Shown piece after piece: positions 44,256 through 54,188 of a DNA stretch of 64,000 nucleotides (the stretch's first letter is position 1; each line of letters starts with the position of its first letter). A program made the position numbers and the translations under genes. The DNA lies in the IMG/VR virus record IMGVR_UViG_3300021181_000006, positions 62,001-126,000 of that record; one strand, given 5' to 3'. Under the pieces are notes generated by a model that did not search any database, was not told the origin of the DNA, and worked only from the letters and a program-made list of their open reading frames with translations. Source of the DNA: a virus.

Positions 44256-44323
44256 TGTGCATTAGCTCAGCGTAGAGCACTCGCCTCGTAAGCGATAGGT
44301 CGCAGTGTGATACTGCATGTACT
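44256..44323 (+). tRNA. Probable degenerate tRNA-Thr(CGT)
   Basis: D arm GCTC...GAGC and anticodon stem TCGC/GCGA with loop CTCGTAA are good, but the acceptor is short (GTGCAT/ATGTAC), the T arm has 4 bp (GCAG/CTGC) with loop TGTGATA, and no CCA is encoded. Functional status doubtful. Confidence 0.5.
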
Positions 44324-44328
44324 TTTAT

Positions 44329-48006: not shown

Positions 48007-48393
48007 ATGTCTGATGCTATATGTTTAGAATGTTCTGAATCATTTACTTACAGTGGCTCAGTTAAATATAAATATTGTTCCAATAAATGTCAGCAGTGGT
48101 TCCAAACTAAGAAAAAAATAGAGTCTGGCAATTATACTGCTCCAATGGCTAAGAGATATCTTTTAAAGATACGAGGCATTAAATGTGAAATATGTGGAAT
48201 AACTGAATGGTGCGGACAGCCAGTACCACTAGTATTAGATCATATCAATGGTAATTCTGATAATAATGCATTAGATAATTTAAGATTAGTATGTGGGAAC
48301 TGTGATATGCAATTACCGACATATAAAAGTAAAAATCGTGGCAATGGTCGTCATTCTAGGCGTATACGTTATGAGGCAGGCCAGTCATATTAA
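48007..48393 (+). CDS. Free-standing HNH endonuclease
   Basis: 128 aa. N-terminal zinc finger CLECSESF...YCSNKC; HNH core CEICGITEW...LDHINGNSDN, then NLRLVCGNC. Metal-dependent nicking/homing nuclease. Ends 3 nt before tRNA-Thr, another tRNA-side insertion. Confidence 0.9.
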   Translation: MSDAICLECSESFTYSGSVKYKYCSNKCQQWFQTKKKIESGNYTAPMAKRYLLKIRGIKCEICGITEWCGQPVPLVLDHINGNSDNNALDNLRLVCGNCDMQLPTYKSKNRGNGRHSRRIRYEAGQSY

Positions 48394-49897: not shown

Positions 49898-50731
49898 GGC
49901 TTTGTGGGGGAATAGGCAGACCCGTCAGACTTCGTGCTTGACATGAGCGGCAGACTCATATCATGAAAGATATGAGTCAACTTACTTGTGCCAAGTGTGG
50001 TCAACCTAGGGATAAAGGACGTAGGATATGCCGAAGCTGTTATCTTTCTGAAAAGAAAATAACAGCCAAAGCACGTCATGCAGTCCAGGGTAGATATATG
50101 TATCACTTAGTGTGTAAGGCTTGTAATGCCAAATACACTGTAGCGAGAAAAAGCTCTCAGTTTTGTCCTGTGTGTAGAGATTTAAGGAATGTTAAACCGA
50201 TTCATATTAATGAATATGTTTATAATTCTGAAATGAGTAAAAAAACAGGTCATACTTGGGAGCATAGATGTATAGCTGAATCAGTAGTTGGAAGAAAGCT
50301 TCATACCAATGAAGTAGTCCATCATATGGATCATAATCCTAAAAATAATCAGCTAGAAAATCTCCTCGTCATATCAAGAGTGATGCATATAAAACTACAT
50401 CGTTATCTAGATGATCATAGAGTCATTATGGAGCAATCCATACATGAGAATTTCGAGAATTGCTGGAATAGCCTCATAACTCCTATAACTACAGCATGGT
50501 TGGAAACAACGGGTGCGAAAGTCATAAAAATATGGGAGATTGGCCAATCAGCAGCCGAGCCTCAAACTATACGAGTAGATGAGGAAGGTTCAGAGACTAT
50601 GCACGAAACATCCCACGTGGATGAAGATATAGTCCAGACTACAACAGCCGTGCTGGCTAGCGAAAGCTAGAGTAGTAAGAAAATCTGATGTCCGCAAGGA
50701 CGTGTCGGTTCGAGTCCGACCAGAGCTACCA
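49898..50731 (+). tRNA. tRNA-Leu(TAA) split by a group I intron
   Basis: Exon 1 49898-49932, exon 2 50680-50731. Acceptor GGCTTTG/CAGAGCT, ACCA; joined anticodon arm TCAGA-CTTAAAA-TCTGA; variable arm GTCC-GCAA-GGAC; T arm GTCGG/CCGAC. The intron sits after U34 of the UAA anticodon, the same place as the trnL(UAA) intron of cyanobacteria and chloroplasts. Core elements: GGCCAATCAGCAGCCGAGCC (~50546), TTCAGAGACTA (~50590), GATATAGTCCAGACTACAAC (50626). Intron ends in G50679. Confidence 0.88.
49963..50670 (+). CDS. Intron-encoded HNH homing endonuclease
   Basis: 235 aa inside the tRNA-Leu intron. Zinc knuckles CAKCGQPRDKGRRICRSC and CKACNAKY...FCPVC; HNH_3 core WEHRCIAESVVGRKL, EVVHHMDHNPKNNQLENLL, MHIKLHRYL. 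The C-terminal ~45 codons coincide with the intron's catalytic core. Mobilises the intron into intronless tRNA-Leu alleles. Confidence 0.9.
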   Translation: MKDMSQLTCAKCGQPRDKGRRICRSCYLSEKKITAKARHAVQGRYMYHLVCKACNAKYTVARKSSQFCPVCRDLRNVKPIHINEYVYNSEMSKKTGHTWEHRCIAESVVGRKLHTNEVVHHMDHNPKNNQLENLLVISRVMHIKLHRYLDDHRVIMEQSIHENFENCWNSLITPITTAWLETTGAKVIKIWEIGQSAAEPQTIRVDEEGSETMHETSHVDEDIVQTTTAVLASES

Positions 50732-52000: not shown

Positions 52001-52746
52001 GCGTCTGTAGCTCAATGGTAGAGCAGTGGACTTTTGTAATGGAAGCTTCATGTAGTAATACATGAATGAACATTTCGCTATATGCGGGAACACCCTCAGA
52101 GCCTGAAGTACCGAAAGGTAACAATCTTCAGGATTGGGCAATCCGCAGGAAACTTATAGACCTTATGATTAGTAATCATATACTCTCATTAAAAGGGGAG
52201 TATTATGCATGCAAAATCAAAAGGATTATTAGGAGAGCTAATGATAGCTAAGGATCTGGTTGAGTTCGGTTTTGAAGTTTTCACCGAATTAGGCGATAAC
52301 TCTAAAGTCGATCTTATTGGTTTATATGACTATAAACCATATAAGTTTCAAGTAAAAGCAGCAACTACCACTCAGCATGGAGTTGTTATGCTTGATTCAA
52401 GAAAATCAGGACCTAACTATCATTTCAGGTACGAAGCAAAACATGCAGATATATTCGCAATATATGTCCTAGATAGGAATATTATTGCTTATGTATCTGC
52501 AGAAATGCTATTATCTGGCATCTCTGTGACATTGAGAATCGATCCGGCTGCAAATAACCAAACAGCAAATGTTAGGTATATTGCAGACTATCGAGATCCT
52601 ATGAGGCTCCTCAGAGACTATACGCGAAACACCCAAACTCTGGGTGATGATATAGTCCAGACTACAACAGCAGCAACGCTGGTTCGTGAAAACGAAAGTA
52701 GTAGGTAATCCACGGGTTGGCAGTTCAAATCTGCCCAGACGCACCA
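52001..52746 (+). tRNA. tRNA split by a group I intron, probably Lys(TTT)
   Basis: Acceptor GCGTCTG/CAGACGC, ACCA, D arm GCTC...GAGC, T arm GGCAG/CTGCC. With exon 1 ending at 52034 and exon 2 starting at 52706 the anticodon arm is GTGGA-CTTTTAA-TCCAC = Lys(UUU), supported by a P1 pairing CTTT/GAAG and a ...GG intron end. Splicing one base earlier gives Thr(UGU), but a Thr(TGT) gene already exists at 48397. Intron core: GGGCAATCCGCAGG (~52136), CAGAGACTATAC (~52611), GATATAGTCCAGACTACAAC (52649). Confidence 0.8.
52205..52708 (+). CDS. Intron-encoded PD-(D/E)XK homing endonuclease
   Basis: 167 aa. KGLLGELMIAKDLVEFGFEV, SKVDLIGLY, YKFQVKAATTT give the E...D...Q/E-x-K core of the I-Ssp6803I-like PD-(D/E)XK group, known from tRNA introns. 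The C-terminal DDIVQTTTA matches the HNH protein of the other intron because both are read from the shared intron core. Its TAA stop overlaps the first bases of exon 2. Confidence 0.82.
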   Translation: MHAKSKGLLGELMIAKDLVEFGFEVFTELGDNSKVDLIGLYDYKPYKFQVKAATTTQHGVVMLDSRKSGPNYHFRYEAKHADIFAIYVLDRNIIAYVSAEMLLSGISVTLRIDPAANNQTANVRYIADYRDPMRLLRDYTRNTQTLGDDIVQTTTAATLVRENESSR

Positions 52747-52769: not shown

Positions 52770-53093
52770 ATGCCACCTAGAAAACCCATGGGTCTTGGCA
52801 CAATATATACACCTAAGAAAATATCATGGCAAACTATTCTACAACCATTGCTAGATGCACATGAAGCACGCCTTACTGATATAGAGAGAAATCTTGGTCT
52901 TGGTTATCCCTTTACGATAAAACACGAGCATAATGTGATTTTTATCTGTTATAGAGATAGGCTGCACGCTGTGAGGCCTGGACACTCTCCAGACCCAACT
53001 ACGTATTATAGTGAGTCTATTACCTCGTATACGTTGGTCACGGAACAAGGCTTAATGAATAAACATCATGAGTTTACATTACTACCATGGTAA
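52770..53093 (+). CDS. Small protein, LTDIER tandem family (1 of 5)
   Basis: 107 aa. HEARLTDIERNLGLGYPFTI; the L-T-D-I-E-R-x-L-x-[IL]-x-[YF]-P motif recurs in the next four genes. Unknown. Confidence 0.65.
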   Translation: MPPRKPMGLGTIYTPKKISWQTILQPLLDAHEARLTDIERNLGLGYPFTIKHEHNVIFICYRDRLHAVRPGHSPDPTTYYSESITSYTLVTEQGLMNKHHEFTLLPW

Positions 53094-53104
53094 ATGGTGG
53101 ACCT

Positions 53105-53389
53105 ATGCTCTATACCTATCAATGGATAGAAATCCATCGACCATTCTTAATGGCTCATATGGCACGTCTTACTGATATAGAAAGACAGCTCGATATTGGA
53201 TTTCCATTCAAGCTTATACATAAGCCATTCGGAAGAATGGAATATAGGCATGAACTCTATAAGAATTACTTTCATATTAAAGGGATTCAGAACTTTATAT
53301 CCTATCATGCTCATGGATCATTCTTATCTGAAGAAGATGGAGATATACTGGATAACATCCGTAAGCAATTTGTAGTCGAGCCATGTTAA
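53105..53389 (+). CDS. Small protein, LTDIER tandem family (2 of 5)
   Basis: 94 aa from ATG 53105 (53087 possible). MARLTDIERQLDIGFPFKLI. Unknown. Confidence 0.65.
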   Translation: MLYTYQWIEIHRPFLMAHMARLTDIERQLDIGFPFKLIHKPFGRMEYRHELYKNYFHIKGIQNFISYHAHGSFLSEEDGDILDNIRKQFVVEPC

Positions 53390-53646
53390 ATTGGCATGTC
53401 GTTTTTTCTAATACTCTCAGAGTACATGAAGATGGTCTCACTCCCATGGAGAAACAGCTCAATATTGGATACCCTATACTTATCTCTATGATGAACCCTA
53501 AGAACGGATTGCAATATAAGATGCATCTCTATAAGACCTATTTCATCGAAGATATTCGTCTTCACCAAAAGATTTTCTATACCGATAGCTGTCCTTGGGA
53601 CGGATGGGTGATATCCAGTATACGTGAAAGTATTAGGCTATTATGA
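53383..53646 (+). CDS. Small protein, LTDIER tandem family (3 of 5)
   Basis: 87 aa. DGLTPMEKQLNIGYPILISM then a YKMHLYKTYF strand like the fifth member (MKVYLYKDYF). Unknown. Confidence 0.65.
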   Translation: MLNWHVVFSNTLRVHEDGLTPMEKQLNIGYPILISMMNPKNGLQYKMHLYKTYFIEDIRLHQKIFYTDSCPWDGWVISSIRESIRLL

Positions 53647-53912
53647 AAATATTGAAAACAATAAGCTTTGGTGAGGCATTAGCGCCTATTATTAATCAAT
53701 ACCGTGATAAACTCACTGATATAGAGCGAGATCTCAATATTCTCTTTCCTATACGTCTAAAAAACGCCTTCATTTATGAAGATCGTATTACTATATTCTA
53801 TGGACCTCAGTCAGATACGGTGATGTTTCATCAAATCATTATGTATGACACTATGGAGGTTGAAGTACATGATGATGAACTTACATTCCAGCTGCGACAG
53901 AAAAGATCATAA
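53643..53912 (+). CDS. Small protein, LTDIER tandem family (4 of 5)
   Basis: 89 aa. DKLTDIERDLNILFPIRLKN. ATGA-linked to the third member. Unknown. Confidence 0.65.
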   Translation: MKILKTISFGEALAPIINQYRDKLTDIERDLNILFPIRLKNAFIYEDRITIFYGPQSDTVMFHQIIMYDTMEVEVHDDELTFQLRQKRS

Positions 53913-54188
53913 ATGGAAAATAGATTGACGTGGGGAGATCTCTTCCATGATGTCATGGAAGAGCGGCTATCGCGGGTGACAGAGATAGAACGGTGTATGA
54001 ATCTTACGTATCCTATTATAGTGAGGCTCCATCATCATATGAAAGTATATCTCTATAAAGATTATTTTACTTCACACTTTCCAGAAGATATTATCTCATA
54101 TCGAGTGTCGTATGCCATTATTCCTCAAATAGATAACGATGATCACTTTCTGGAAGAACTAAAAAAGACACTGACACTCATTACATAA
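53913..54188 (+). CDS. Small protein, LTDIER tandem family (5 of 5)
   Basis: 91 aa. SRVTEIERCMNLTYPIIVRL. Starts immediately after the fourth stop. Unknown. Confidence 0.65.
   Translation: MENRLTWGDLFHDVMEERLSRVTEIERCMNLTYPIIVRLHHHMKVYLYKDYFTSHFPEDIISYRVSYAIIPQIDNDDHFLEELKKTLTLIT

What the first reader, a model, noticed from the sequence alone, without database searches (positions are those of the whole stretch)
49898..50731. Group I intron in phage tRNA-Leu(UAA) at the cyanobacterial/plastid trnL position, with HNH gene
The intron interrupts the anticodon loop after U34 and shows P4/P7-type conserved strings. The same site hosts the classic trnL(UAA) intron of cyanobacteria and plastids; a phage copy with a homing gene bears on how that intron spread.
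Basis: partly seen in the sequence, partly recalled or inferred. Interest (0 to 1): 0.72.

Follow-up and report, generated by a model that had tools for sequence, protein, structure and literature searches.

The report
Mosaic self-splicing intron in phage tRNA-Leu
A large, uncharacterised phage carries a mobile self-splicing intron inside its leucine tRNA gene at exactly the spot used by the classic cyanobacterial and chloroplast intron; it is one of many such phage copies, and its ribozyme appears stitched together from two different intron lineages.

Summary
Window 49898-49932 and 50680-50731 are the exons of one tRNA-Leu(UAA). A 747-nt group I intron (49933-50679) separates them after U34, with an HNH_3 endonuclease ORF in its P1 loop. 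Rfam scores it 61.6 bits, the joined exons are called tRNA-Leu(taa), and covariation across ten relatives supports P3-P9. Three things change the picture. (1) It is not alone: at least 109 other viral contigs, about 91 bacterial contigs and named phages (Atu_ph07, a 735-kb huge phage, Lak-B1) have a group I intron at this site. A 2014 review said all phage introns then known lay in protein genes. (2) It is not a copy of the cyanobacterial intron. P4-P6 scores like phage protein-gene introns, P7-P9 like the trnL lineage: a mosaic. A second intron 2 kb away, in tRNA-Lys(UUU) with a PDDEXK_5 ORF, shares its P7-P9 at 88-94%. (3) The HNH frame runs on through the catalytic core. In the trnL lineage phage and bacterial copies are interleaved (one phage clade rejected, p-AU 0.0004), whereas cyanobacterial copies form one clade. 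Nothing shows that phages delivered that intron. Splicing and homing are untested.

The parts
49898..49932 (+). tRNA-Leu(UAA) 5' exon (acceptor strand to U34)
   Evidence: Joined exons called tRNA-Leu(taa) by ARAGORN
49933..50679 (+). Group I intron, 747 nt, after U34, ends in omega-G
   Evidence: RF00028 61.6 bits; exon test; covariation
49963..50670 (+). HNH_3 endonuclease ORF, 235 aa (stop included); double zinc-ribbon-like start; frame continues through P2, P3 and P4-P9
   Evidence: Pfam HNH_3 1.5e-7; ORF list; frame open in 10 of 11 relatives across P3-P6
50420..50424 (+). Internal guide sequence GAGUC: pairs with exon GACUU (U34.G) to make P1; the HNH ORF therefore lies mainly in the P1 loop
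   Evidence: Duplex and conservation in relatives
50427..50442 (+). P2 hairpin with GNRA loop (UAUGGA-GCAA-UCCAUA)
   Evidence: Sequence; compensated in relatives
50451..50589 (+). P3 5' strand and P4-P5-P6 domain, phage protein-gene type
   Evidence: HMM: 11.6 bits protein-gene profile versus 1.2 trnL profile; covariation
50590..50679 (+). P7-P3'-P8-P7'-P9 domain and 3' splice site, trnL-lineage type
   Evidence: P7'-P9: 34.3 bits trnL profile versus 0.0; shared with the Lys intron at 88-94%
50680..50731 (+). tRNA-Leu(UAA) 3' exon including CCA
   Evidence: ARAGORN on joined exons
52001..52034 (+). tRNA-Lys(UUU) 5' exon
   Evidence: ARAGORN on joined exons
52035..52705 (+). Second group I intron, after U35 of tRNA-Lys(UUU)
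   Evidence: RF00028 22.8 bits, below gathering; P9 20.0 bits with trnL profile
52205..52708 (+). PDDEXK_5 endonuclease ORF in the Lys intron; its stop codon is the first three bases of the 3' exon
   Evidence: Pfam PDDEXK_5 2.5e-15; sequence
52706..52746 (+). tRNA-Lys(UUU) 3' exon
   Evidence: ARAGORN on joined exons

Best explanation
A mobile, self-splicing mosaic group I intron in a phage tRNA-Leu(UAA) gene. Splicing (inferred from anatomy): exon GACUU pairs with guide GAGUC across a P1 loop that holds the HNH gene; exogenous G bound in P7 attacks after U34, then U34 attacks after omega-G, joining the anticodon loop and releasing the intron. Spread (inferred): the HNH protein nicks or cuts intronless trnL alleles in co-infecting phages and repair copies the intron in. 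Origin (supported by sequence): an exchange joined the P3-P6 half and HNH gene of a phage-type intron to the P7-P9 half of the intron lineage that occupies trnL(UAA) in bacteria and phages. The HNH frame then extended into the ribozyme ('core creep'), so one stretch serves both RNA fold and protein C-terminus.
For: Group I identity. tRNA exons and boundaries. Guide-exon match: in five HNH-bearing relatives besides the window GAGUC pairs with GACUU at the same alignment place, and in two relatives whose intron sits one base earlier (after U33: L282, L295) the guide reads GGUC, which matches GACU with a U.G at the shifted site. HNH. Mosaic: P4-P6 window 1.2 versus 11.6 bits; P9 34.3 versus 0.0; ten relatives alike, medians 1.0/17.4 and 17.4/0; Leu and Lys introns of this genome share only P7-P9. 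Core overlap: frame open across 40 codons of P3-P6 in 10 of 11 relatives and in 0 of 9 phage introns with the same P5 motif but no such ORF.
Against: No splicing or cleavage data. P1 is predicted; a weaker local alternative (CUU.GUG/CAUGAG) exists at 49930-49950, and L290 has a mismatch in its guide. Codon positions in the overlap show only a mild third-position excess (350/342/439 differences), so selection on the protein there is not proven. The protein-gene comparison set is small (16). The P9 module also occurs in protein genes (HTVC120P capsid, crAss-like dnaB), so the exchange need not have happened at a tRNA.
Confidence: 0.75

Rival explanations
1. It is a plain phage copy of the classic trnL(UAA) IC3 intron of cyanobacteria, diverged but unmixed.
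For: Same site after U34; P7'-P9 scores 34.3 bits with the trnL profile.
Against: P4-P6 scores 1.2 bits with that profile although 93% of cross-validated trnL introns exceed 10; it fits phage protein-gene introns better. The blastn hits in compact trnL introns fall almost entirely in P7-P9.
Confidence: 0.1
2. P9 similarity is convergence: an unrelated phage intron entered the same site independently and evolved a P9 that suits the tRNA exon.
For: Different P4-P6 and HNH family; three core types share this P9 at anticodon-loop sites.
Against: 31 nt at 94% and 24 nt at 88% identity between two introns with unrelated P4-P6 is much for convergence; the same P9 occurs in a capsid gene, so it is not a tRNA adaptation.
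Confidence: 0.12
3. The intron is decaying: tRNA no longer made, HNH frame a relic.
For: No expression data in either direction; only the sequence is available.
Against: All core helices intact, exons fold to a canonical tRNA, HNH motif intact, and no other tRNA-Leu called in the record.
Confidence: 0.05
4. The ORF overlap with the core is a chance open frame; the HNH protein really ends near the guide sequence or P2.
For: Mild codon bias only; ORF ends vary among relatives; a published warning about such overlaps (PMC3073962).
Against: 10 of 11 relatives are open in this frame over P3-P6 and none of 9 controls; the TGA seen in most related ORF-less introns is replaced.
Confidence: 0.35

Closest known systems
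Cyanobacterial/plastid trnL(UAA) intron (group IC3; Anabaena, plastids)
   Same: Same tRNA, same phosphate (after U34), omega-G, U.G at the 5' site, P7-P9 alignable
   Different: Different P4-P6 domain; HNH gene in the P1 loop; no cyanobacterial copy of the window type found
Compact phage and bacterial trnL(UAA) introns found here (e.g. Agrobacterium phage Atu_ph07)
   Same: Same site and P9 type
   Different: IC3-like P4-P6, mostly 193-240 nt without ORF; those with an ORF mostly carry another HNH type, often antisense in gammaproteobacteria
Phage protein-gene introns (T4 td/nrdB/nrdD, Twort, SPbeta, Acinetobacter terminase)
   Same: P4-P6 of the same general type; phage mobility with endonuclease genes
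   Different: They sit in protein genes, most have a longer segment between P7 and P7', and a different P9
Synechocystis tRNA-fMet intron with I-Ssp6803I (PD-(D/E)XK in P1)
   Same: Endonuclease gene in the P1 loop of a tRNA intron overlapping P1/P2 (PMC3073962); nuclease class like that of the window's Lys intron
   Different: Different tRNA and organism; the Leu intron here carries HNH

Membership tests
Group I intron | Covariance-model match over the conserved core | tested here: met
   61.6 bits over cut-off 50, model 1-253
Group I intron | P3/P7 pseudoknotted core with compensatory changes | tested here: met
   P3: 4 of 5 pairs with two-sided changes, 100% paired; P7 paired but nearly invariant
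Group I intron | U.G at 5' splice site in P1 and omega-G at 3' end | tested here: met
   GACUU/GAGUC duplex and terminal G; by prediction, not experiment
Group I intron | Autocatalytic splicing in vitro | not testable with these tools
   Needs transcript assay
trnL(UAA) IC3 intron family of cyanobacteria and plastids | Insertion after U34 of tRNA-Leu(UAA) | tested here: met
trnL(UAA) IC3 intron family of cyanobacteria and plastids | IC3-type P4-P6 | tested here: not met
   1.2 bits versus cross-validated median 61.4 for members
trnL(UAA) IC3 intron family of cyanobacteria and plastids | P9 and 3' end of the lineage | tested here: met
   34.3 bits, member median 29.2
HNH homing endonuclease | HNH motif | tested here: met
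   PF13392 1.5e-7, residues 101-139
HNH homing endonuclease | Cleavage of the intronless allele | not testable with these tools
   Needs protein assay

The most novel reading that the evidence does not exclude
Phages are a main traffic route for introns at the tRNA-Leu(UAA) anticodon loop. Different ribozymes repeatedly enter that site in phages, swap whole catalytic domains, and pass to and from bacteria, possibly including the ancestor of the cyanobacterial and plastid intron.
Probability: 0.25. Interest if true: 0.78.

Novelty: new variant of a known kind. Interest (0 to 1): 0.6.

Why it matters
A standard review (PMC3984707) states that every phage group I intron then known lies in a protein gene despite the many phage tRNA genes. 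Here the textbook bacterial tRNA site is filled in at least 109 further viral contigs and in named phages, where tRNA finders miss it. This makes the old question of how the trnL intron spread testable with phage-host pairs. The mosaic ribozymes point to domain-level exchange between intron lineages, and the guide sequence that shifts with the insertion site is strong comparative evidence for working splice-site choice.

Tried and rejected
The search for related loci with the HNH protein found no relative in viral contigs. A pattern scan for tRNA-Lys introns gave one hit (L297) whose sequence looked like chance. I first placed the HNH gene in P2 with a local P1 next to the 5' site; one search showed the conserved guide after the HNH domain, so it is in the P1 loop. 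I first took the P9 module as tRNA-specific; phage protein genes also have it. The third-codon-position test is inconclusive. The phage could not be named: no megablast match, little in PHROGs, no terminase by two models, ribonucleotide reductase best 47% identity. Rejected: that the window copy is a simple cyanobacterial intron; that phage copies of the trnL lineage form one clade (p-AU 0.0004).

Full report
OBSERVATION. The window is bases 62001-126000 of a 184,466-base virus record. At 50403-50657 it holds a full-length match to Rfam Intron_gpI, 61.6 bits. The flanks are the halves of a tRNA. With 49933-50679 removed, ARAGORN calls tRNA-Leu(taa); with it in place it calls nothing. The insertion point is after U34, the intron's last base is G, and the gene ends with an encoded CCA at 50731. 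No other tRNA-Leu was called by ARAGORN in the window or in the other stretches read (one search lists the Rfam tRNA matches without anticodons), so the phage copy would need splicing to be used.

ANATOMY. The 235-aa ORF (49963-50670) matches HNH_3, with HHMDHNPKNN..H intact. A pentamer GAGUC at 50420-50424, followed at once by a GNRA-capped P2, pairs with exon GACUU, giving the U.G pair expected at a group I 5' splice site. The same GAGUC lies at the same alignment place in the HNH-bearing relatives L016, L025, L034, L285 and L291. So the HNH domain is in the P1 loop. In two relatives (L282, L295) the intron sits one base earlier, after U33, and the guide there reads GGUC, matching GACU with the wobble at the shifted site. 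That covariation of guide and splice site is the best comparative evidence for function.

CORE. The core alone folds to P4, P5 with its extension, P6, P7, P8 and a forked P9. On an alignment of ten relatives, 95.9% of cells pair, 29 of 59 pairs change on both sides and the covariation score is 0.439, against 0.05-0.10 for slid partners. P3, which makes the pseudoknot, is 100% paired with 4 of 5 pairs compensated.

HOW COMMON. A pairing-based search for the 5' exon then gave 203 tRNA-Leu(UAA) genes split after U34: the window's intron twice, 109 other viral contigs and 92 bacterial contigs (one weak). By record titles they span Pseudomonadota, Bacteroidota, Bacillota, Acidobacteriota, Bdellovibrionota, cyanobacteria and others. 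These are lower bounds, conditional on the pattern, and some metagenomic bins may hold phage DNA. Most are compact (193-240 nt); most long ones carry HNH-like ORFs, often antisense in gammaproteobacteria (Pfam on four of them, names three). Named phages have it too: Agrobacterium phage Atu_ph07 (its paper lists 33 tRNAs and never uses the word intron, PMC6102473), huge phage LR756501 and Lak-B1. Microcoleus phage My-WqHQDG has a related intron in what reads as tRNA-Arg(CCU).

TWO LINEAGES, ONE MOSAIC. Blastn of the window core matches near full length only L016, L025/L044 and L034; in compact introns it matches mostly P7-P9 alone. Further scans gave more relatives of the window type, including L296, 278 nt without the HNH domain. 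Profiles were built from 86 compact trnL introns and 16 phage introns outside tRNA (T4, Twort, SPbeta, Acinetobacter terminase, viral contigs; one search located many). P4-P6 of the window scores 1.2 (trnL) and 11.6 (protein-gene); P7'-P9 scores 34.3 and 0.0. Ten window-type introns behave alike; in cross-checks neither set's P9 profile scores the other set above 4.8. In the window itself, the Leu intron and a second intron in tRNA-Lys(UUU) (52035-52705, PDDEXK_5 ORF) share P7-P9 stretches at 88% and 94% while their nucleases differ. L011 and L012 have another core type with the same P9 in what reads as tRNA-Leu(UAG). The P9 module also occurs in phage protein genes, and pYD6-A and AD45 look like the reverse mosaic by eye. 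Exchange of whole domains between group I lineages is thus the best reading; where it happened is open.

CORE OVERLAP. The HNH frame runs from the P1 loop through the guide, P2, P3 and P4-P6, in the window to 12 nt before the splice site. It is open over 40 codons in 10 of 11 relatives, 0 of 9 controls with the same P5 motif. The relatives are not independent, and codon-position counts are only mildly biased. Overlap of this kind is known as core creep; the longest example in the review's table is 81 nt (PMC3073962), against about 217 nt here from P3 to the annotated stop, if that stop is the real one.

SPREAD. In a tree of 110 introns of the trnL lineage (three added from named phages) the nine cyanobacterial ones form one clade (100/100), one phage clade is rejected (p-AU 0.0004), and the phage label needs 10 changes (at least 4 forced by starred branches). 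The HTVC120P capsid-gene intron pairs with the trnL intron of the 735-kb phage (95/93), though its branch is long (a quick tree agrees on the main points). So introns have passed between phages and bacteria several times, and at least once between a tRNA and a protein gene. The direction and any tie to the cyanobacterial ancestor are not shown. The window intron is outside this tree because its halves appear to have different histories.

KNOWN VERSUS NEW. Group I introns in bacterial tRNA-Leu(UAA) and phage introns with HNH genes are textbook. The 2014 review says all phage introns then known were in protein genes (PMC3984707). My searches of the open-access library found no later report of phage tRNA group I introns, but most subscription papers are not held. 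I class this as a new variant of a known kind.

Noticed in passing
window 52001-52746: Second interrupted tRNA gene, tRNA-Lys(UUU), with a sub-threshold group I intron after U35; its PDDEXK_5 ORF runs through P7-P9 and stops on the first three bases (TAA) of the 3' exon.
   Followed up: partly
window 48007-48393: Free-standing HNH_3 ORF (128 aa) about 1.5 kb upstream of the split tRNA-Leu.
   Followed up: no
window 52770-54188: Five small tandem ORFs look like paralogues sharing a 'LTDIERxLxIGYPxxI'-like stretch.
   Followed up: no
window 44256-44324: tRNA-like gene scored by Rfam (40.8 bits) but not called by ARAGORN; the loop suggests anticodon CGU.
   Followed up: no
L273 about 1440-1520 (Lak-B1): The 3' end of another group I intron appears to lie inside the D-arm of the same tRNA-Leu, so that tRNA may hold two introns.
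   Followed up: no
L011 (match at 1361-1383, - strand), L012 1628-1650: Group I introns in what reads as tRNA-Leu(UAG), with an apparently antisense ORF and a core like the window's Lys intron.
   Followed up: partly
L337, L339, L336 (pYD6-A, AD45-P1, SP-15): Phage introns with trnL-like P4-P6 but protein-gene-type P7/P9: apparent reverse mosaics, judged by eye.
   Followed up: no
L010 2969-3576 (Acinetobacter phage YMC13/03/R2096): Two unannotated group I introns just upstream of, and likely within, the terminase gene; one is similar to the window Lys intron.
   Followed up: partly
gammaproteobacterial contigs such as L158, L165, L228, L262: Chromosomal trnL(UAA) introns often carry an HNH-like gene on the antisense strand.
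   Followed up: partly
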